From: Candidatus Mycoplasma haematobovis
GTDB taxonomy: Bacteria > Bacillota_I > Bacilli_A > Mycoplasmatales > Mycoplasmoidaceae
DNA length: 64,000 bases
NCBI RefSeq assembly: GCF_001645765.1
Contig: NZ_LWUJ01000010.1
Span: 62,001-126,000 of the forward strand
Direction of reading: 5' to 3'
Positions 2,562 to 63,400 of this stretch are shown here, one piece after another; position 1 is the stretch's first letter; each line of letters begins with the position of its first letter. A model generated the notes under the pieces. The model did no database searches, had not been told where the DNA came from, and saw only the letters and a list, made by a program, of their open reading frames with translations. Made by a program: the position numbers and the translations under genes.

Positions 2562-3827
2562 TTATCTTCTATTCTTCTTAACTAACGCTTTAATAGACTG
2601 TTCATCAAAATTAGCTGTTCCACATCCCTCTTCATCATCTTTACATTCCTTTGTAAATCTATTATTAAATTGTTCTACAAAAGCCAATTCTTCCATGCTT
2701 GTTGGAAATTTGACATCATAAGCTTTCCTTGCTACTTTTGCCAAAGCATTTATTAATGCCTCTTCATTGTTATTTAAAGCTTCCAAAAACTGTTGTTTAG
2801 CAGAATTAGTTGTCTTTCCTTTTTGCTCTTTTTGAACATCTTCTTTAATAATTTTCAAATATTCATTCATATACTTACGTGCTATTTGTTTAATATTCAC
2901 ATCCCCCATTCAAGAACCTCTAATTCCAACTAAATTAGTCAAAGCCTCACCAATCATATTTCCTAATACTTGTTAAGGTGTTTGTGGCTTTCCTCCTTTA
3001 GCAGATGAAAAAGCTCTTGAATTTCTTGCTGTTCTAATTGAGGCTCTTTCAGTTCTTCATTCTCTTCTTGTAATTCCTTATCTTTTTGTTCTTCTTTGGC
3101 TTTATCAGCCCTTTCTTTCTGCTTCTCTAATAATTCTTTTGCTGCTTTTTGAGCTTCTTCAGGGTCATCTAAATACTTCTCAATAATTTCTTTCATTTCA
3201 TCCTGATCCATTTTGATAAATGTTTCATCATTCTTCTCTACTAAATCAGCAAAAGTAGACATCATCTCACCAAAGTCTTCTCTCTCCATTAATGCTGATA
3301 GCTTGTCTCAATTATCTCCAGATCCAAACATGGCTCACAATGCTGAGCCACCTCCCCCGCCCAAGAATGTTCCTCATTTGAATAATGAAAGTCTTAGTTT
3401 ACGTCAGTTTTGAACCATATCTGGAATATTTGAAATAAATATCAAGAACTTTTCTTTGAATCACCAATAAACTATTTCTCCTCAAGCATGTAGCTTATTG
3501 TAAAGATTTACTACTCCAGATTTAAATCCATCTGGACCTAAGTAATTATCAAGTCATGCTTTGCAATCATCTTTAGTAGCAACAATAGCACTACCTCATG
3601 AATGTAAAGTAGAACTTACTTTACTTATTCCACTTAATAAAGTATCATTAAATAATGCTTCTTTGACAGGGCCAAGCGCTTTAATAATAGATTCTTTACT
3701 GTTACTAGAATTAAAAGTAACAACAGTAAATGCTCCTGCTGTTGTAATAGTTGTTAAAGTGGCTGATAATCCCTGCTTAAAACAAAACCCTGCCGCTCTA
3801 ACAGATGGGGGTGAGCTTTAATTGCAA
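2562..3827 (-). pseudogene. PC-family gene, degraded copy
   Basis: TTG start with QLKLTP, then only five C, which puts the hydrophobic N-terminal block out of frame. The body is recognisable by 'MEREDFGEMM', the Lys/Glu coil and a C-terminal 'DDEEGC' stretch. Two further lesions lie near 2970-3015: a frameshift at a run of T, and an in-frame TAA where relatives read 'TPGQV' or similar. With three lesions this copy looks dead rather than switched off, but it may still donate sequence for recombination. Confidence 0.85.
3807..3811 (-). repeat. Shortened poly-C tract (5 C)
   Basis: Five C at the position where active PC genes have nine; out of frame. A tract this short should be stable, consistent with a decayed copy. 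Confidence 0.85.
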
Positions 3828-3847
3828 AAGAAAGTAATATTTACTAC

Positions 3848-6917: not shown

Positions 6918-8174
6918 TTATTTACCTCTAACAAACATATCCGCTGTCATATCAAAGTCTCCTTCTTCATTCTCTAACGCCTTCTTAGTAAAACTATTTT
7001 CAAATTCTTTCATAAAGGCTTCAGCCATTTCTTTTTCTGTTACTTCTTTTCCATTTGATTGAGGAGTTGGTAACTTTCTGTAAGCTTTTTCTGCAACACC
7101 AGCTATAGCACTAATAAATGCAAATTTGTTTTCCTTAATAACTTCAGCAAACTGTTGTTTTGGTGTGCCTTCTTTTTTTCTAGATTGTTCTTGCTTTATG
7201 TCTTTATCAATTAAATCTATATAGTCCTTCATACCTTCTATTGCTGCTAAATAAGGGCTTTTCCCCTCAATTGAAGACTTAGATTTACTATTAAACAAAC
7301 CAACTAATTTCTTTAAACCTCCTGAAACCATATTTCCAAATACAGCTTTTGTATCTAGTGGGTTGCCACCACTTGGAGGTTTAAATCTTTCTTGAATTTC
7401 TTCTTCTGTTAATTGTTCTTTCTCTTTCTCCTCTTCTGACTTATCTTTTTGTCTTTCTTCTTGTTTCTTTAATAATTCTTTAGTTGCTTCTTTAGCTTCA
7501 TCTGTTTCATGTAAGAATTTCTCAAATATTTCTTTAACTTCTTCAGTATCCATCTTTTCAAAAGCATCACTATTATTCTCCATTAACTTTCCAAGATCGC
7601 CCATAATCTCTTCAAAATCAGGCCTTCCCATTAATTCACCTAACTTATCTCAATTATCTCCAGAACCAAACATAGCTCATAAAGCGGAACCGCCTCCTCC
7701 ACCCAAGAATGTTCCTCATTTGAATAAAGATAGTCTTAATTTACGTCAGTTTTGAACCATATCTGGAATATTCGTAATGAATTTCCAGAACTTATCTCTA
7801 AATCATCTATAGACTATTAATCCTCAATCATTTAATTTTTGGTAAAGAGTTACTGTTCCAGACTTAAATCCATCTGGACCTAAATAACTATCTAATCATT
7901 CTTTGAAAGCATCTTTAGATCCAACTATTGCTGATCCTCATTCCTTAAAGGTCTCTGTAACTTTCTGTATTCCATTTAATAAAGTATCATTAAGTAAGGC
8001 TTTCTTAACAGGGTCTAAAGATTCAAGAATAGTTGAACCAGTATTTCCTGAATTAAGAGCTACTGCTGTAAGTGTACCTACAGCAGTCATTCCAGATAAG
8101 ACTGCTGATATACTTGACTTAAAGCTTGAACCTGCTACTCTAGTGACTAGGGGGGAGGTGAATCTTAATTGCAC
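6918..8174 (-). CDS. PC-family protein with interrupted C tract (open)
   Basis: 418 residues from GTG (QLRFTSPLVTR). Residues 16-42 are hydrophobic. Residues 79-150 are Trp-rich, and a Gly5 turn (FLGGGGGSALW) lies near 157-161. From 182 (MGRPDFEEIM) the protein is a Lys/Glu-rich, probably coiled-coil domain. The tract reads CC-T-CCCCCC, so slippage should be rarer than in C9 copies. It lacks the C-terminal Cys pair of several relatives. A membrane-inserted N part with a soluble helical C part is likely; the function is unknown. Confidence 0.92.
8150..8158 (-). repeat. Interrupted poly-C tract (CCTCCCCCC), frame open
   Basis: A T after two C gives Ser at codon 7 and shortens the pure run to six C. 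The gene is in frame. Confidence 0.9.
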
Positions 8175-16657: not shown

Positions 16658-17926
16658 TTACTTCCTACTTTTCTTGGGTGGTGTTGATGGAACTTTTTCT
16701 CTTATTGAAATGCCCTCCTCTCCGTCTCCATCAGTAGCTTCAACTGTAAATTCCTCTTCTAAAATCTCTCCAAATTTCTTTGCTAAATCTTCATATTTAA
16801 CTTGTTGACTAGGTTTTTTAATTGCCTCAAAAGCTTTTTTGGCAGCTTCTGCAAGGGATAATATAAATGCTGTTTCATTATCTTTAATAGCATCTAAGAA
16901 CTTCTGTTTTACATCTGATTTTCTTGCTTTCTTCTCAACATCTTTTCTAAGAGTATCAATATATTCCTTCATTTTCGTTTTTGCAGTATGTGCAATATCT
17001 GTATCTCATAACTTAGTTGGCGATATATCCACCATGCCCTGCAAGGCACTTCCTACCATATCTCCAAATGCCTCTGTGGGATTATTAGGAGAACCACCAC
17101 CAGAATTCTTAAATTTCTCAACAATCTCTTCTTTCTCTAGTTCTTCTTTAGGCTCTTCATTTTCTTTGCCTTCTTTCTTTAGTTCCTCTTTTTTCTTTTC
17201 ATTTTTCTCCTTTTGTTCGTCTAACAACTCACCTAAAAGCGCCTCTGCTTCTTTAGGATCATCTAAGATTGCTTCAAACATTTCTTTTGCCTCCTCTTCA
17301 TTCATTTCTGAAAATGCTGCACCATTCTCTTCAACTAACTTAGAAAACTTATCTACTACTCCCTCAAATTCAGGATTACCAATTAAATCTGCTAACTTAC
17401 CTCAGTTATCTCCAGATCCAAACATAGCTCATAAAGCGGAACCGCCTCCTCCACCTAAAAATGTACCTCATTTGAATAAAGACAATCTCAATTTATCCCA
17501 GTTCTTTACCATATCTGGGATATTTCCTATGAATTTAATAAATTTATCTCTAAATCATTCGTAGACTATGGTAGCTCATGCAACAAGCTTATGATAGAGT
17601 TCAGAAACACCAGATTTAACTCCATCAATTCCTAAATAACGTTGCAATCAACTACGAAAATCATCTTTAGATCCAAAAATAGCTTGTGCCCAACTATTAA
17701 ATGTATCTCCTAATTTATTAATTCCTGAAGAAAGAAAACTAGCTTCTCATACTTTCTTTAAAGGATCAAAAGCACTACCTAATGATTTTTGAGCTTGTGC
17801 AAAGTTAAATACAACCGCAGAACAAGTTCCAGCTACAGTTAATCCAGTAAAGGTAGCAGATAATATTTGATTAAAGTTGGCTCCAAAAGTTCTGACGACT
17901 AGGGGGGGGGTGAGATTTAACTGCAC
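16658..17926 (-). CDS. PC-family protein, C9 tract (open)
   Basis: 422 residues from GTG (QLNLTPPLVVRTFG). Its N-terminal block is closest to that of the gene starting at 10994 (same VVRTFGANFNQ). Gly5 turn, then the coil with 'MNEEEAKEMFEAIL'. The C-terminal loop reads DGDGEEGISIRE, without Cys and EF-hand-like in spacing. Frame continuous through TGA-Trp codons. Confidence 0.92.
17902..17910 (-). repeat. Poly-C tract, 9 C, frame open
   Basis: Nine C at codons 6-9 of the PC gene starting at 17926. Confidence 0.92.
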
Positions 17927-18737: not shown

Positions 18738-20001
18738 TTATTTCTTTTCATTTGATAAAGCTTTAACTAATTCATCTGCATCACAATCTTTTCCTCCTTC
18801 GCATGGAATTGTAAGTGCTTCAATGAATTTTTGAGTTAAAGCCTCTATTTTTAGCGATTCTGAAGATCTATAGGCTTTAACAGCAGCGGTAGCAAGAGCA
18901 TTAACCAACGCTTCTTTTTCTTGAGCAATAATATCTAAAAATTCTGACTTAACTGAAGGTTTTCTAGATCTTTTAGCTTTCTCTTTTTCAACATCATTTT
19001 TCAAAGATTCTAAATATTTTTCCATGCCTTCCTTTGCTTTAGATTCAATTTCTAAATTTGATCCACCAAAAGAAAAATAAGATAAAGATTGAAGTTTCTT
19101 TAGTCCTTCAGTAACCATATTACTAAATACGGCCGGAACTGTAGGTGGTTGTCCTGCCTGTGAAGGATTAAATTTCTCCTTTATTTCCTCAACACTTAAT
19201 TCTTTTGATTTTTCCTGCTTTTCTTCGTCTTTCTTCTCTTCTTGTGACTTATTCTCTTTATCTTTCTCTTCTTTTTCTTTTCGCTCTTTTTGTTCCTGTA
19301 ATAAATCTTTAGCAGCTTGTTTTGCTTCTTCTGGATTATCTAAATACTTTTGCAAAATATCTTCAACATCTTCTGGTCCCATCTCTTTAAAGGCTTCTTC
19401 ATTATCTTGAACTAATTGATTAAAATCATTCATCATTTCCATAAAATCAGGATGACCCATTAAATCACCTAACTTACTTCAATTAGCTCCTACGCCCAGC
19501 ATAGATCAAAGTGCAGAACCCCCTCCACCTCCTAAGAATGTACCTCATTTAAATAGAGATAATCTTATTTGTTTTCAGTTCTCAACTATTTTGGGAATAT
19601 TTCCTACAAATTCTAAAAACTTATCTCTAAATCATCGATAAACTATTCCTGCTCAATTATGTAACTTTTCATAAAGAGCTACAACTCCTGCTTTAAATCC
19701 ATTTACATCAAAATAACGATTTAATCAATCGATAAATGCATCTTTGGAATTGAATATCGAACCACCTCAATCTTTGAATGTATTATTTAAATTAAAAATA
19801 CCTTTTGAAAATAAGTTAAAGATATATGTATTCTTAATTGGCTCTAAAGCTTTACCAATAGAATTTGCTTTATCTAAATTAAATGAAATGGTTGAGCATG
19901 TTCCGACTGCAGTCATTCCAGTTAAGACTGCAGAAAAACTATGTTTAAGCCCTGAACCAGTTATTTTGGCTGCTAGGGGGGGGGGTGAAACTTAAACACA
20001 T
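18738..20001 (-). CDS. PC-family gene switched OFF by a C10 tract
   Basis: Start ATG (MCLSFTPP). With ten C the frame shifts and ends after about 20 codons. With nine C the gene would encode 420 residues: hydrophobic block, Trp-rich part, Gly5 turn, 'MGHPDFMEMM', Lys/Glu coil, 'CEGGKDC' loop. I checked the region from the tract to 19460 for TAA/TAG in the correct frame and found none. The intact remainder argues for a recent or reversible change rather than decay. Confidence 0.88.
19976..19985 (-). repeat. Poly-C tract, 10 C, frame closed
   Basis: One C more than the open relatives; the downstream family frame (LAAKITGSGLKH) needs nine. Confidence 0.92.
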
Positions 20002-22781: not shown

Positions 22782-24012
22782 TTACTTAGTCAATACTTCA
22801 GTTAATCCATCAGCGTTACAATCATCTCCATCTAAACAAGGTATTGTAAGTACTTCTGCTAATTTTTTCTTTAAATCTTCTGGTTTTCTACTATCGCTTA
22901 TTTGATAAGCCTGAGTTACAGATTTTGCAAGAGATTTAATAAATAGTTCTTTTGCATCCTTAATAGTATCAAGGAAATCTTGTTTTGCCTTAGATACTTT
23001 TGAATTTTTGGCTGCTGTTTTCTTTAAATCTTCTTCAATAGCAGAAATATACTCTCTCATTCCATTTTCTATTTCTGACTCTATAGACTTAATAGGACTA
23101 TCAAAAGAAGAAGCATGCTTAGAAGCGAGCATTTTTTCTATTCCTTTTGAAACCATACTATTAAAGACAGCGCCAGGCGTTTCAGGCTTGCCTCCTTTTT
23201 TAGGATTAAATTTATCTTGAATCTCTTCTGAACTTAATTCTTTTTTTGGCTCTTTTTCCTCTTCTTTCTTTTGCTCATTCTCTTTATTCTTCTCTTCTTG
23301 TTCTTTAATTAATTCTTTAGCGGCTTGTTTTGCTTCTTCTGGATTATCTAAATATTTCTGAATAATATCTTGGATGCCTTCAGACCCCATTTCTTTGAAG
23401 GAATCCTCATTATCTTGAACTAACTTATTAAAGTCATTCATCATATCTTCAAAATCATCTCTACCCATTAATTCACCTAACTTATCAAAATTTGCCCCAC
23501 TACTAAACATAGCCCAAAGTGCAGAACCCCCTCCACCTCCTAAGAATGTACCTCATTTAAATAATGAAAGTCTTATTTTCTTCCAATCTTTAACCATCTG
23601 AGGAATATTTGAAATAAAGACTAAGAACTTATCTCTAAATCATCGATAAACTATTCCTCCTCAATCATAAAGCTTACGATATAGATCTACTGCTCCAGAT
23701 TTAAGACCATCTGCACCTAAATAATTCTTTACTCATTCTCTAAAGTCATCTTTAGAGTTAATTATTACAGTAAATCAATCTTTGAGTGTATCTCCCGTTT
23801 TCTTTATTCCATCATACAAATAACTGTTCAAAAATACTTGCTTAACTGTCCCAAATGCACTATCAACAGTATTCTTTGCTCTATCTAAATTAAATATGAC
23901 AGCAGTAGATGTCCCTGCTGCTGTCATACCAGAAAGAACTACAGAAACACTAGGTCTAAAAGCAATACCACTTGTTCTGACGGCTAGGGGGGGGGGTGAG
24001 TCTTAATTGCAC
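22782..24012 (-). CDS. PC-family gene switched OFF by a C10 tract
   Basis: GTG start QLRLTPP. Ten C shift the frame, which then stops after about 20 codons. With nine C the product would be 409 residues with hydrophobic block, Gly5 turn, 'MGRDDFEDMM', Lys/Glu coil and 'CLDGDDC' loop. No TAA/TAG in the correct frame was found between 23510 and the tract. An internal ATG (MFSSGANF) could give a shorter product lacking the N-terminal part. Confidence 0.88.
23987..23996 (-). repeat. Poly-C tract, 10 C, frame closed
   Basis: Ten C; the downstream family frame (LAVRTSGIAFRP) needs nine. Confidence 0.92.
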
Positions 24013-27959: not shown

Positions 27960-28191
27960 AGCCAACTATCATCAAAGGTGCTACAACAATCGCCAACAGA
28001 GATTAAGCAATATTAACAAAAAAGTTGAAAATTACAAGAAACAAAAGGCAGATACATATCTAATAAGACAAAAGAAAAATACCATTAATGTCAAAGTTCT
28101 AAGAACTTAATGTAAATCCTCTAAAGATAAACATTCCAAATACGAAGAAGATTCAAGATATCAAAAATTCTTAATGTGATGTGCAAACTAG
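27960..28191 (+). pseudogene. Family E remnant
   Basis: No start or anchor remains. The tail is clear from about 28090: 'KSSKDKHSKYEEDSRYQKF' then MWC and TAG. In the penultimate WC motif the Trp codon is TAA, a TGA-to-TAA change. It lies where a full family E gene follows the B gene in other clusters. Its TAG overlaps the TAG of the PC gene on the other strand. Confidence 0.78.
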
Positions 28192-29435
28192 CCTTTCTTA
28201 TTTAGTAAACCTGCAATATCTACTTCGGCACAGTCTTCATTGTCTTGACATACAGTTGTAAACGCACCTTCCAAAGCTTTCGCAAACTCTTTTGCTAAGT
28301 CTTCTAATTTTGGTTTCTTGGTAATATTTGAAGCTGCAATCATTGCATTTTTTGCTAATGCATCAACAAATTGAGTTTCTGATGCTTGAATAATATCTAA
28401 GAATTGTTTTTTGGCAGAAGGTTTTGCATTTTTTCTTTTTGTCTCTTTTTCAACATCACTCCTAATATCTTGAATGTATTGATTCATTGCTGCTTTCGCT
28501 TTATTTCTTGCTAGATCTAAACTAAATCCACCAAAAGAAGAATAAGGTAAATCTAATAAACTACCTAACCCCCTTTCAGCCATACTTCCTAATACCTCTG
28601 CAGTAGTTTGTGGATTTCCTCCTTTCCTAGGAGAAAAAGCATCTTTAATTTCTTGCTCCTCTAATTGTGGTTCTTTGTCTTCCTGAGTTGGATCCTTCTT
28701 AGCCTCCTCTTTCTTTTCTTCTTGTTTCTTTAGTAACTCTTCAGTAGTTTTTTTAGCTTCGTCTGGTTCATCTAGAAATTTTTCAATTATTTCTTGAAGT
28801 TCTTCAGACTCCATATTATTAAATGCTTCATTATTCTCCTCTACTAACTTAGTAAGTGAAGACATAATTTCTCCAAAGTCATCTCTTTCCATTAATTTAG
28901 AAAACTTATCAAAGTTTTCACCACTACTAAATACAGCCCATAAAGCAGAACTACCCCCACCTCCTAAGAATGTACCTCATTTAAATAATGAAAGTCTTAA
29001 TTTGTCTCACTCTTGAACCATCTTTGGAATATTCTTTACAAACTCAATGAACTTAGTAGCAAACCAGTTGTAGACTATTAATCCTCAAGCTTGTAACTTC
29101 TCAGCTAATTGTGCTACTCCAGATTTAAGACCATCTGCACCTAAATAACGCTCTATTCAACTCTTTAAATCATCTTTAGCACCAACAACTGCAGATCCTC
29201 AATCTTTTAGTGTTGTTGCTACTTGTGCTATTCCATCATATAGAGGGCTTGCTTTAAGAACCTTTACAAACTTATCTAGAGGCTCACTAACTTTTTCAGA
29301 TGCTAAATTTGAACTAAATATTACTGTTGAAAAAGCTCCTGCTACAGTAAGACCAGATAATATTGATGATATTCCTTGTCTAAATCCAGAAGTAGCTACT
29401 GTGGTTACTAGGGGGGGGGTGAACCTTAATTGCAC
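28188..29435 (-). CDS. PC-family protein, C9 tract (open)
   Basis: 415 residues, GTG start QLRFTPPLVTTVA. Hydrophobic residues 18-46, Trp-rich middle, Gly-rich turn ending SALWAVF, 'MERDDFGEIM' at 182, Lys/Glu coil, C-terminal loop CQDNEDC. Its first 80 residues and the following 30 are almost the same as in the gene starting at 42320, while the coils differ, suggesting gene conversion of the 5' part. Confidence 0.93.
29411..29419 (-). repeat. Poly-C tract, 9 C, frame open
   Basis: Nine C at codons 6-9 of the PC gene starting at 29435. Confidence 0.92.
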
Positions 29436-31489: not shown

Positions 31490-32695
31490 TTAATCTTTAA
31501 CCTCCAAAGCCTCAACCAAACCACCTGCATCGCATTGTTCTTCATTTTCACAAGGAGCTGTTAATGCTTCCACAAACTTATCAGTTAAAGTCTTTAATTT
31601 CAAATCAGTTGCATTATCGTAAGCTTTTTTTGCAGCGATAGCAAGAGTATTAACAAACTCTTCTTTTTTATCCTTTATGATATCTCAAAATTTTGCTTTA
31701 ACAGATGGTTTTCTGTTTGATTTTTCCTTCTCTTTTTCAACATCTGCTTCAATTTTTGAAAGATATTCATTCATTGCTTTTCTTGCCATATCTTCAGGAG
31801 GCGCAAAAGAATAACTATTTGATAATAATTTTTTTAAGCCCTGTGTAACCATACCACTAAACACAGCAGGCACTGTTGGTGGTTGACCTGCTTGTGAAGG
31901 ATTAAATTTCTCCTTTATTTCTTCAGAACTTAATTCTTGCTTCTCCTTCTTTTCCTCTTGATCCTTTTCATTCATCTCCTTTTGCTCTTTAAGTAATTCT
32001 TTGGCTGCTTCTCTTGCTTCTTCTGGATTATCTAAATACTTCTGAAGAATATCCTCAATTCCTTCTGAGCCCATCTCTTTAAAGGCTTCTTCATTATCTT
32101 GAACTAATTGATTAAGATCATTCATCATATCTTCAAAGTGAGGATGACCCATTAAATCTCCTAACTTACTTCAATTAGCTCCCGTACCAAACATAGCTCA
32201 TAAGGCAGAGCCTCCACCACCTCCAAGAAATGTACCTCATTTAAATAGAGATAGTCTTAACTTATCTCAATTCTTAACCATCTCTGGAATATTCCCTATG
32301 AACTCAATAAACTTAGTAGCAAACCAGTTGTAGACTATATCTACCCAACTATGAAGCTTATTGTAGAATTCAACTGTTCCAGACTTAAGACCGTCTGGCC
32401 CTAAATAACTCTTTACTCAATCTCGAAAATCATCTTTTGAATTAATTATTACTGCAAATCAATCGCCAAAAGTTTCTGTAGTCTTCTTTATTCCATCATA
32501 TAGATAACTATTAGTAAATGCTTCTCTAAATATTCCTAAAGAACTAGTAATAGTTTCTTTAGCTCCAGAAGAATTAAGAACTACAGCAGTACAAGTGCCT
32601 GCTGTAGTAAGGCCTGATAATACTGCTGATATACTAGGCTTAAAACTTGAACCAGCTGCCTTGACAGCTAGGGGGGGGGTGATCCTTAATTGCAT
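31490..32695 (-). CDS. PC-family protein, C9 tract (open)
   Basis: 401 residues, ATG start MQLRITPPLAVK. Hydrophobic residues 16-43, Gly turn, 'MGHPHFEDMM' at 182, Lys/Glu coil. A TGA-Trp at 31682-31684 lies in the coil where relatives have Leu; translation continues about 65 codons to the 'CENEEQC' loop and TAA. The coil up to residue 270 is very like the gene ending at 18738. Confidence 0.92.
32671..32679 (-). repeat. Poly-C tract, 9 C, frame open
   Basis: Nine C at codons 6-9 of the PC gene starting at 32695. Confidence 0.92.
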
Positions 32696-41075: not shown

Positions 41076-42320
41076 TTATTTTCTTTTCTTCATTTTTGGA
41101 GCAAAATTAGGTACTTTATCTTTTAAAGATACACCTTCTCCCTCGCAATTATCCCTGCATTCTTCAGTATAGTCACTCTCTAAAATAGACCCTAATTCTT
41201 TAGATAATTCTTCAAAAGTAACTTTTCCTCTTAACTCTACTCTTTTGTAAGCTTTAACTGTTGAATCGGTCAAGGCTTTAATTAATTGTCCTTCTTTATC
41301 TTCCTCTAAGGCCTTTAAGAATTCTTGCTTTGCTTTATCAGCTTTACTTTTTACTTCTCCTTTAGATACTTCTTTCTTAAGATGGTCCACATAATCTTGC
41401 ATTGCTTTTTTCGCAGTATTTTCAAGACTACCTCCAAAAAAAGAATTTGACAAATCAACTAAAGATTGTATTCCTCCACCTAACATGTTTTGAAATACTC
41501 CCTGTGGGTCTTTAGGGGATCCACCTTTTGAAAATGCTTCTTTAATTTCATCTTTACTTAATTCATCCTTCTTCTCATCTTCTTTTTTCTCTTTATTTTT
41601 TTCTTTTTGATCTTCAAGTAATTCTTCAGTTATTTCTTTAGCTACTTCAGGATTCTCTAAAAATTGCTCTAATATCTCTTGTGCTTCTTCCTTATCCATA
41701 GAGGCAAAAGCCTCTCCATTATCTTCAACTAATTTTGAAAATTTCTCAGCAATATCTGCAAACTCTGGATTGCCTAGTAATTCTCCTAACTTATCTCAAT
41801 TCTCACCGCTACCAAACATAACTCATAAAGCAGAACCCCCTCCTCCACCTAAGAATGTTCCTCACTTAAATAGAGATAATCTTAATTGTTTTCAATTCTT
41901 AACCATTTCCGAAATATTGGAAATGAATTTAAGAAATTTATTAGCAAATCAATCGTAAACTATATTTGCTCAAACATGAAGCTTCTCATAAAGAGTTGCT
42001 ACTCCAGACTTAAGACCATCTGCACCTAAATAACGCTCTACTCAACTCTTTAAATCATCTTTAGCACCAACAACTGCAGATCCTCAATCTTTTAGTGTTG
42101 TTGCTACTTGTGCTATTCCATCATATAAGAGGCTGGCTTTAAGGCCCTGTATAAATTTATCTAAAGACTCACTAACTTTTTCAGATGCTAAATTTGAACT
42201 AAATATTACTGTTGAAAAAGCTCCTGCTACAGTAAGACCAGATAATATTGATGATATTCCTTGTCTAAATCCAGAAGTAGCTACTGTGGTTACTAGGGGG
42301 GGGGTGAATCTTAACTGCAT
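41076..42320 (-). CDS. PC-family protein, C9 tract (open)
   Basis: 414 residues, ATG start MQLRFTPPLVTTVA. Residues 1-110 are almost the same as in the gene starting at 29435; after that the coil is its own (MDKEEAQEILEQF) with fewer charged repeats and a C-terminal loop CRDNCEGEG. Ends in basic KMKKRK. Hydrophobic residues 18-46 and Gly5 turn present. Confidence 0.93.
42296..42304 (-). repeat. Poly-C tract, 9 C, frame open
   Basis: Nine C at codons 6-9 of the PC gene starting at 42320. Confidence 0.92.
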
Positions 42321-53771: not shown

Positions 53772-54969
53772 TTATTTCTTATTAGATAAAGCATCAACTA
53801 ATCCATCAGCATCACAATTATTATCGGTACATGGCATTGTAAGCGCTTCAATGAATTTTTCAGTTAATGTTTCAATTTTTGCCTCTTTAGATCGTTGATA
53901 AGCTTTTTCTGCTGCAATTATTCCTAAAAACTCTGCTTTTGCAGAGGGCTTCTTAGATGGTCTTTTTCTTTCTTCATTTACGTCTGCCTCAAGATCTTGA
54001 ATATATTTTGCAATTGCTTTTTTTGCAGAATTTTTTAAGGTTTCAAAAGAAAAATTAGAGGCAAGTAATCCTTTCAAAACAGCATTAACTGTATCGCTAA
54101 GTACAGCAGCTGGAGTAGGTGGCTGACCAGTTTTTGATGGCTTAAATTTTTGCTTTATCTCTTCTGCTGTTAATTGCTTTTCCTTCTCCTTTTCTTCCTC
54201 TGTTTTTTCTGCCTTATCAGATTTTTGCTCTTCTGTTTCAGCTTTCTTCTTTTTCTCTTCTTGATCTTTAATTAACTCTTGAGCTGCTTCATGTGCCTTA
54301 TCAGGATCATCTAAATACTGTTCTAAAATCTCTTCAATTCCTTCTGCACCTAAATCTTCAAAAGCGTCTGGGATTCTCTTGAACTAAAGTATTAAAGTCA
54401 TTTATCATTTCTTCAAATTTAGGATGTCCCATTAAATCACCTAATTTACTTCAATTAGCACTATTTCCAAACATAGCTCACAAAGCAGATCCTCCTCCCC
54501 CTCCTAAGAAAGTGCCTCACTTAAATAAAGATAACCTTAATTCCTTTCAATTCTTTACCATCTCAGGAATATTCCCAATAAATTTAAGAAACTTATTCGC
54601 AAATCATTCATAAACTATCTTTGCCCAAGCAACTAATTTCTCATAAAGCTCTAATGTCCCTGACTTAATTCCATCAATATTAAAGAATGATTGAAATCAC
54701 TGTTGAAAATCATCTTTCTTGCCTACAACACTAGCGCCTCATTCACTAATAGTATTTCCTAATGCATTAATTCCTTTTCCAAAAGGAGTTAATGCTAATT
54801 GTGCAAAAGCTGGCCTAATTGCTTCATTTAATTTTGTAGAAATACTACTATTAAATACTAAGACAGAGCCAGATCCTACAATTACTGTTCCAGCTAAACA
54901 AGAAACTAATAATTGACGACAATTAAAACTTAATAATTCTGAAAATGGGGGAGTGAGCTTTAAATACAA
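53772..54969 (-). pseudogene. PC-family gene with internal frameshift
   Basis: TTG start YLKLTPPFSELL; the tract is short (ACTCCCCC) and in frame. The hydrophobic block, Trp-rich part and Gly5 turn are intact. Near 54370 one extra base in CCC breaks 'VQEN' from 'DAFEDLGAEGIEEIL'. The rest of the coil is open in the new frame to the 'CTDNNC' loop and TAA. The C-terminal domain also lacks about 15 residues present in relatives. A product of about 200 residues without the coil may be made. Confidence 0.82.
54947..54951 (-). repeat. Short poly-C tract (5 C), frame open
   Basis: Five C at codons 7-8, interrupted by T upstream. Not expected to slip often. Confidence 0.8.
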
Positions 54970-62465: not shown

Positions 62466-63400
62466 TTATTTTAAAGACCCAGACGATTGAGTCCTTAGTG
62501 TTTCTTTAATCATCTCTGATAATTTTTGTAATTCTTCATAAGCTTTTTTTCTTCAGTTTTGTCTGACTTAGTTAATTTTTGTTTAGCTGTAAAGTATTCG
62601 GCACGCGCAATTGCAGCCTTTATTTTTCCTATTAAAGCTGACGGTTTAAGGGCCCCTATAACATCATCTTTCTTAACTGTTCCTTCTGGTTTTTTTGCAA
62701 ACTCTTGCAACTTTTTTGTTGTATCTTCTGGGTTTTGATTGTAGGCATGCATTAAATCTCCAAATTCCTGACCTGTCATACCTTTAAAAGCCTCGACTTG
62801 TTTTGAAGCCAATTGACCCACTGCAGATAAAAAATCGCCAAAATTCCCTTGCCCTAAAGCCTTAAATAACTGAGCTAACATAGACTCATTATTTTCAAAA
62901 CCACCTTTGAAAATATTGCTCAAAAGAGAAAGAAACTCTGTAGCCTTTGACCCATATTCATTAATCAAAGGTCTTAACTTTTCTCAGAAATCTTTACTTC
63001 ATAAAGAAGAAACATATCTCTTTAAGAATTCATAAGCAGTATTACCTCAATTAATCAATATACTAAATATTTCTTTTGCTCCTGCAAGCTACACCATCCA
63101 GCTTAGCTAGCTTTATTCAATTAGATACATTATCTTTTTGATTAGCTATTAATTTAGATCAATCACCTAAAGTTCCAAATAATCCCTTAGTTCCGTCTAA
63201 GACTTTATTTGCATAAGGTTTCAGTGGACCGGTTGCTTTATCTATATTACTACTTAAAATTCCAACTACTTTTTCAGGTCCTCTAGAAGTTGAAGTGACT
63301 AAAGCTATTGAAGAAGTTACTGCTACTCCTAAGAATAAAGTGGGTTTAAGAGATGCAGTACTAAATCAGCTCTCTAGGAGGGGGGGGTAGAGAATTGCAT
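62466..63400 (-). pseudogene. PC-subtype gene, C8 tract plus two frameshifts
   Basis: ATG start MQFSTPP; eight C are one too few. Beyond the tract 'FSTASLKPTLFLGVAV' is clear. An extra T near 63093 (GCTTGCAGG) and a missing A in an A7 run near 62552 also shift the frame. The middle 'LFKALGQGNFGDF' and 'AFKGMTGQEFGDLM' are intact. Unlike the C10 copies it needs three changes to be whole, so it is probably dead. Confidence 0.82.
63380..63387 (-). repeat. Poly-C tract, 8 C, frame closed
   Basis: Eight C; nine would open the first part of the gene starting at 63400. Confidence 0.9.

What the first reader, a model, noticed from the sequence alone, without database searches (positions are those of the whole stretch)
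18738..20001. 420-codon gene closed only by a tenth C
Every TAA/TAG between the tract and 19460 is out of the family frame, so the gene is intact but for one base. A neutral dead gene of this size should have collected more stops.
Basis: seen in the sequence. Interest (0 to 1): 0.72.

Follow-up and report, generated by a model that had tools for sequence, protein, structure and literature searches.

The report
Poly-C on/off switch, OFF copy
In a red-blood-cell parasite of cattle, this gene belongs to a family whose members each carry a run of about nine Cs right after the start codon; this copy has ten, which shifts the reading frame and shuts an otherwise undamaged gene, most likely as a reversible on/off switch of a suspected surface protein.

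Summary
Confirmed. On the minus strand an ATG at 20001 is followed, 16 nt from its first base, by C10 (19985-19976). Read with the Mollicute code (TGA=Trp) it stops after 18 codons, while the family frame beyond the tract is open for 412 codons to a TAA at 18738. The window matches the 'Candidatus Mycoplasma haemobos' INIFAP01 draft. The copy is not unique: C9 copies are open, three C10 copies and one C8 copy are closed. An unrelated family elsewhere in the genome has G10/G7 open and G9/G8 closed. The tract is kept although CCC is about 7% of proline codons, and the three C10 copies carry no other lesion; truly decayed copies lost or interrupted the tract and have internal breaks. MutS was not found. 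The gene is a mosaic of two paralogues. Best reading: a slipped-strand on/off phase switch like Mycoplasma hominis vaa, caught OFF. Switching itself was not observed; no second isolate was available.

The parts
19999..20001 (-). ATG start codon of the closed copy
   Evidence: Aligned with ATG/GTG/TTG at the same place in the paralogues
19976..19985 (-). C10 tract (closed state)
   Evidence: paralogues with C9 are open
19945..19947 (-). TAA that ends the out-of-frame reading after 18 codons
18741..19976 (-). Post-tract part in the family frame, 412 codons without TAA/TAG (code 4)
18738..18740 (-). TAA stop of the family frame
6918..8174 (-). Paralogue, tract interrupted (CCTC6), open, 418 aa
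9744..10994 (-). Paralogue, C9, open, 416 aa
15385..16608 (-). Paralogue, C9, open, 407 aa, TTG start
16658..17926 (-). Paralogue, C9, open, 422 aa, GTG start
22782..24012 (-). Paralogue, C10 at 23996-23987, closed; 401 codons open after the tract
28188..29435 (-). Paralogue, C9, open, 415 aa
31490..32695 (-). Paralogue, C9, open, 401 aa; closest overall to the finding's copy (61% protein identity after the tract)
41076..42320 (-). Paralogue, C9, open, 414 aa
59511..60440 (-). Shorter subfamily, C9, open, 309 aa
60980..61910 (-). Shorter subfamily, C10 at 61889-61880, closed; 299 codons open after the tract
62495..63400 (-). Shorter subfamily, C8 at 63387-63380, closed, with a second break near 63100
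2613..3830 (-). Decayed paralogue: tract lost, internal frame break and stop (internal control for a dead copy)
53775..54969 (-). Decayed paralogue: tract interrupted, internal frame break near 54370

Best explanation
The locus is a phase-variable gene caught in the OFF state. A pure C run occupies codons 6-9. DNA polymerase slippage adds or removes a C; lengths that keep the frame (C9 in this family) give a protein of about 400-420 aa with a hydrophobic N-terminus, while C10 or C8 give a short dead-end peptide. Each paralogue carries its own tract, so a cell population samples many ON/OFF combinations of a suspected surface protein. Paralogues also exchange segments by recombination. Shown here: the anatomy, the frame consequence, the spread of lengths across paralogues, tract conservation, the intact downstream frame, mosaicism, and no MutS detected. 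Inferred: that length changes within a clone, that the change is reversible, that the protein is on the surface, and that selection is immune.
For: Tract anatomy and frames of 12 copies in the window, C9 open and C10/C8 closed, and of further copies on other contigs. Runs of 8 or more C/G far above chance. CCC is 19 of 275 proline codons, yet the tract is pure in most copies, while silent sites elsewhere differ at 51-69%. The three C10 copies have no other lesion, whereas decayed copies have lost or interrupted the tract and carry internal breaks. A second, unrelated family uses poly-G in the same way: 6 open, 13 closed, all with intact frames. MutS_V absent in the genome, control found in 11 of 14 genomes. 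Same logic as M. hominis vaa: A8 ON, A7/A9 OFF (PMC524362).
Against: No length variation within this locus was seen: one assembly, no reads, no other isolate. Segment exchange could spread a tract without selection for switching. The upstream box GTAAAAATAA found before several paralogues is not recognisable before this copy, so it may be poorly expressed even when in frame. Surface location rests only on a hydrophobic N-terminus; no family or usable model.
Confidence: 0.84

Rival explanations
1. Recently and permanently dead gene: C10 is the first lesion of a pseudogene that has not had time to collect more.
For: Clean frame is compatible with up to about 40 neutral substitutions. Real pseudogenes of this family exist nearby. 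The upstream box is not recognisable.
Against: Three separate C10 copies, and 13 closed poly-G copies in another family, all closed at the tract with open frames behind it; known dead copies have degraded tracts.
Confidence: 0.07
2. Assembly or base-call error: the true tract has nine Cs.
For: Draft assembly, homopolymer of 10; reads not available.
Against: Illumina reads at about 48x (PMC4939789); three C10 and one C8 besides many C9 within the same assembly; run lengths vary by locus.
Confidence: 0.05
3. Silent archive: closed copies are kept mainly as donors of sequence for gene conversion into open copies.
For: Mosaic ancestry of this copy (5' third like the copy on contig C12, rest like 31490-32695) and of 41076-42320 (first 129 nt after the tract identical to 28188-29435).
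Against: Open copies are equally mosaic. A pure donor needs neither a start codon nor a pure C tract, and both are kept here. No single expression site is apparent. This reading can coexist with switching.
Confidence: 0.15
4. Leaky expression: ribosomal +1 slippage on CCC-C or RNA polymerase slippage on the C run makes some full-length protein from the C10 copy.
For: A run of proline CCC codons is a plausible slippery site (own knowledge).
Against: No conserved stimulatory element was looked for or seen; C9 copies, the majority, would be harmed by the same slippage.
Confidence: 0.04
5. Not closed: translation starts at the internal ATG 19916 and gives a functional 392-aa protein.
For: Open frame of 392 aa from that ATG.
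Against: This Met is present in only 4 of 12 full-length copies; the others have Leu, Ile or Val there, and the upstream start and N-terminus are conserved.
Confidence: 0.04

Closest known systems
vaa adhesin of Mycoplasma hominis (5' poly-A phase switch; PMC524362, PMC2831843)
   Same: Homopolymer at the 5' end of the coding region; one length in frame (A8), one more or one fewer base out of frame (A7, A9), giving ON/OFF.
   Different: Poly-C instead of poly-A; many paralogues each with a tract instead of a single gene; switching measured for vaa (10^-3 to 10^-4) but not here; no sequence relation was tested or is claimed.
P78 of Mycoplasma fermentans (5' poly-A; PMC2831843)
   Same: One-base change in a 7-base tract near the 5' end inactivates the gene.
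   Different: Part of an ABC transporter operon; single gene; poly-A.
Poly-G/poly-C phase-variable genes of Neisseria and Campylobacter (e.g. PMC3786947, PMC8355987)
   Same: G/C homopolymer in the reading frame sets ON/OFF.
   Different: Different phyla and unrelated proteins; longest-studied switches, with measured rates; known here from abstracts only.
Paralogous hypothetical-protein families of Mycoplasma haemofelis and M. haemocanis (PMC3196708, PMC3496576)
   Same: Large paralogue arrays suspected of antigenic and phase variation; distant relatives of this family occur in the two same-genus genomes of 919,992 and 1,147,259 bp.
   Different: The phase variation discussed there rests on variable tandem repeats; 'homopolymer' and 'slippage' do not occur in either main text. 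The relatives examined lack the poly-C tract; one has G9 near its start.

Membership tests
Homopolymer (slipped-strand) on/off phase-variable gene | Long homopolymer in the 5' part of the coding region, beyond chance | tested here: met
Homopolymer (slipped-strand) on/off phase-variable gene | One length class in frame, neighbouring lengths end translation early | tested here: met
   C9 open; C10 and C8 closed
Homopolymer (slipped-strand) on/off phase-variable gene | OFF copies keep an intact frame behind the tract | tested here: met
   C10 copies at 19985, 23996, 61889; the C8 copy at 63387 does not
Homopolymer (slipped-strand) on/off phase-variable gene | Length varies at the same locus within a population or between isolates | not testable with these tools
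   One isolate, no reads; only paralogues vary
Homopolymer (slipped-strand) on/off phase-variable gene | Reversible change of expression measured | not testable with these tools
   Needs experiment
Homopolymer (slipped-strand) on/off phase-variable gene | Product exported or on the surface | tested here: inconclusive
   Hydrophobic N-terminal stretch seen in the sequence; no Pfam or NCBIfam family shared by members; model pLDDT 50.7
Pseudogene | Several independent disabling lesions | tested here: not met
   Only the tract; decayed relatives at 3830-2613 and 54969-53775 do have several
Pseudogene | Relaxed selection since closure | tested here: inconclusive
   dN/dS 0.27-0.52 but dS 0.86-1.88, so the period since closure is not resolved
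Known protein family (Pfam, NCBIfam, PDB) | Significant profile match shared by members | tested here: not met

The most novel reading that the evidence does not exclude
The organism runs two independent homopolymer-switched families with opposite resting states (a 400-aa poly-C family mostly ON, a 130-aa poly-G cysteine family mostly OFF), about 30 tracts in all, combined with segment exchange between paralogues: a two-layer combinatorial coat that could explain persistence and cycling of hemoplasma infections.
Probability: 0.35. Interest if true: 0.66.

Novelty: new member of a known kind. Interest (0 to 1): 0.47.

Why it matters
Hemoplasmas cannot be cultured and their persistence is unexplained; phase variation was proposed from tandem repeats without a defined switch (PMC3196708). 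Here the suspected switches are defined to the base in two families, so tract lengths can be counted directly from blood DNA during natural infections.

Tried and rejected
Standard-code reading: rejected, because TGA is Trp here and the apparent boundary at 19460 comes from a TGA. Structure: the AlphaFold2 model with 11 rows gave pLDDT 50.7 and pTM 0.34, so no fold search was made. Pfam, NCBIfam and PDB sequence searches: only stray single-member hits. Genome-contig scan: no relative. dN/dS as a test of post-closure selection: computed but uninformative for the poly-C family; for the poly-G family the two youngest pairs do not differ from 1. Internal ATG 19916 as the true start: rejected, not conserved. 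Papers: no report of poly-C or poly-G phase switching in hemoplasmas was found in the library; the library lacks most subscription journals.

Full report
What is there. The window is C1:62001-126000 of a 935,638-bp, 18-contig genome. These figures equal the published draft of 'Candidatus Mycoplasma haemobos' INIFAP01 (HiSeq 2000, SPAdes, about 48x; PMC4939789), a hemotropic mycoplasma of cattle; that it uses TGA for Trp follows from the group and from the open frames. On the minus strand an ATG at 20001 is followed by 13 nt and then C10 at 19985-19976. The ATG frame ends after 18 codons. The frame of the paralogues is open from the end of the tract to a TAA at 18738, 412 codons.

Not alone. 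Twelve tracts of this kind lie in the window, all on the minus strand, 13-22 nt from the first base of a start codon. C9 at 10978, 16592, 17910, 29419, 32679, 42304 and 60418 gives open genes of 309-422 aa. The interrupted CCTC6 at 8155 is also open. C10 at 19985, 23996 and 61889 and C8 at 63387 are closed. Runs of this length are not expected by chance (24 matches, 0.08 expected). A profile of the family finds 27 places in the genome. Outside the window, C9 copies at C1:53595 and C12:74376 are open, two C7 copies of the shorter subfamily are open, and the copy at C12:21780 has no tract and is open.

The tract is conserved as DNA, not just as protein. CCC is 19 of 275 proline codons counted. 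Elsewhere in these genes silent sites differ at 51-69% between copies (pS), yet the prolines of the tract are CCC CCC in nearly all full-length copies. Either selection keeps the run or recombination spreads it. Segment sharing does occur: the 5' third of the finding's copy is closest to the copy on contig C12 and the rest to the copy at 31490-32695 (max chi-square 106.6, permutation p 0.0005 with 55 parent pairs tried), and 28188-29435 and 41076-42320 share 129 identical nt from the last base of the tract onward.

Dead copies look different. At 3830-2613 and 54969-53775 the tract is degraded or interrupted and there are internal stops or frame breaks; the C8 copy at 63387 has a second break. 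The three C10 copies keep a pure tract and have no other lesion.

Stops: simulated with the family's fourfold-site spectrum, P(no stop) is 0.41 after 10 neutral substitutions, 0.16 after 20, 0.03 after 40 and 0.0025 after 100. The clean frame thus limits neutral closure to under about 3-4% divergence; it does not by itself prove reversibility. dN/dS: 0.27-0.52 for the closed copy against 11 paralogues, 0.25-0.57 for the closed copy at 23996, and 0.19-0.46 for two open copies. Since dS for the finding's copy is 0.86-1.88, this reflects long purifying selection on the family, mostly before the present tract length arose.

A second, unrelated family supports the mechanism. On contigs C1 (226-248 kb), C4, C14, C15 and C16, genes of about 130-145 aa (hydrophobic N-terminus; invariant P, W and four C) carry a poly-G run about 30 nt after the start. 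Six copies with G10 or G7 are open; thirteen with G9 or G8 are closed, and these keep an open frame of 109-131 codons downstream. Two recent pairs in this family have dN/dS 1.43 and 1.19, neither different from 1, so relaxed and diversifying evolution cannot be told apart there. At least one copy (C1:247914) is closed and decayed.

Mechanism. Slippage at a G:C run of 9-10 nt in a genome with no detected MutS (control found in 11 of 14 genomes) should change length often. In M. hominis vaa an A8 tract is ON and A7 or A9 OFF, at 10^-3 to 10^-4 (PMC524362). The present family has the same logic with C9 open and C8 or C10 closed. I therefore read the finding as one OFF allele of a phase-variable gene. 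Shown: anatomy, frame effect, paralogue lengths, intactness, conservation, mosaicism. Inferred: length change within a clone, reversal, surface location, immune selection.

Known or new. Homopolymer switches at the 5' end of coding regions are an established kind, in mycoplasmas included (PMC2831843). In hemoplasmas phase variation has been proposed from tandem repeats (PMC3196708); I found no report of poly-C or poly-G switches there. Relatives of the family in two same-genus genomes (919,992 and 1,147,259 bp; the first equals the published size of M. haemocanis Illinois, PMC3496576) lack the C tract, with one G9 exception, so the switch seems to be a feature of this lineage. I file it as a new member of a known kind.

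Limits. One isolate, no reads, no expression data. The upstream box GTAAAAATAA seen before several paralogues is not recognisable at the finding's copy, which leaves room for a weakly expressed or dying copy. The protein has no known family and no usable model.

Noticed in passing
L030, L031, L033, L039, L040, L041, L042 (contigs C1 226-248 kb, C4, C14, C15, C16): Second phase-variable-looking family, 130-145 aa with four invariant Cys, poly-G run about 30 nt after the start; most copies closed (G9/G8), six open (G10/G7).
   Followed up: partly
L035:1797-3318 (contig C11 about 181.3-182.8 kb): A mycoplasma peptidase gene (Pfam DUF31, both halves match) is split into two frames exactly at a G8 run: perhaps a third tract-controlled gene.
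   Followed up: partly
L032:1484-4501 (contig C2 about 7.5 kb): Open frame of about 1000 codons with a DUF3713 match carries C10 at residue 33, just behind a hydrophobic N-terminus; here C10 is in frame.
   Followed up: partly
L067 / L043 (1,147,259-bp same-genus genome, 425,554): One distant relative of the family there has G9 near its start, with an ATG just behind the run; the other relatives have no such run.
   Followed up: no
window 28188-29435 and 41076-42320: Two paralogues identical over 129 nt directly after the tract and 86 nt further on, but only about 59% identical in protein overall: recent segment exchange.
   Followed up: partly
L064, L071, L075, L077, L081, L085, L087, L089 (genome G003, 354-425 kb): In another genus of the family, paralogues with about 500 codons open behind a G9/G10 run in the middle of the gene; some in frame with a nearby start, some not.
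   Followed up: no
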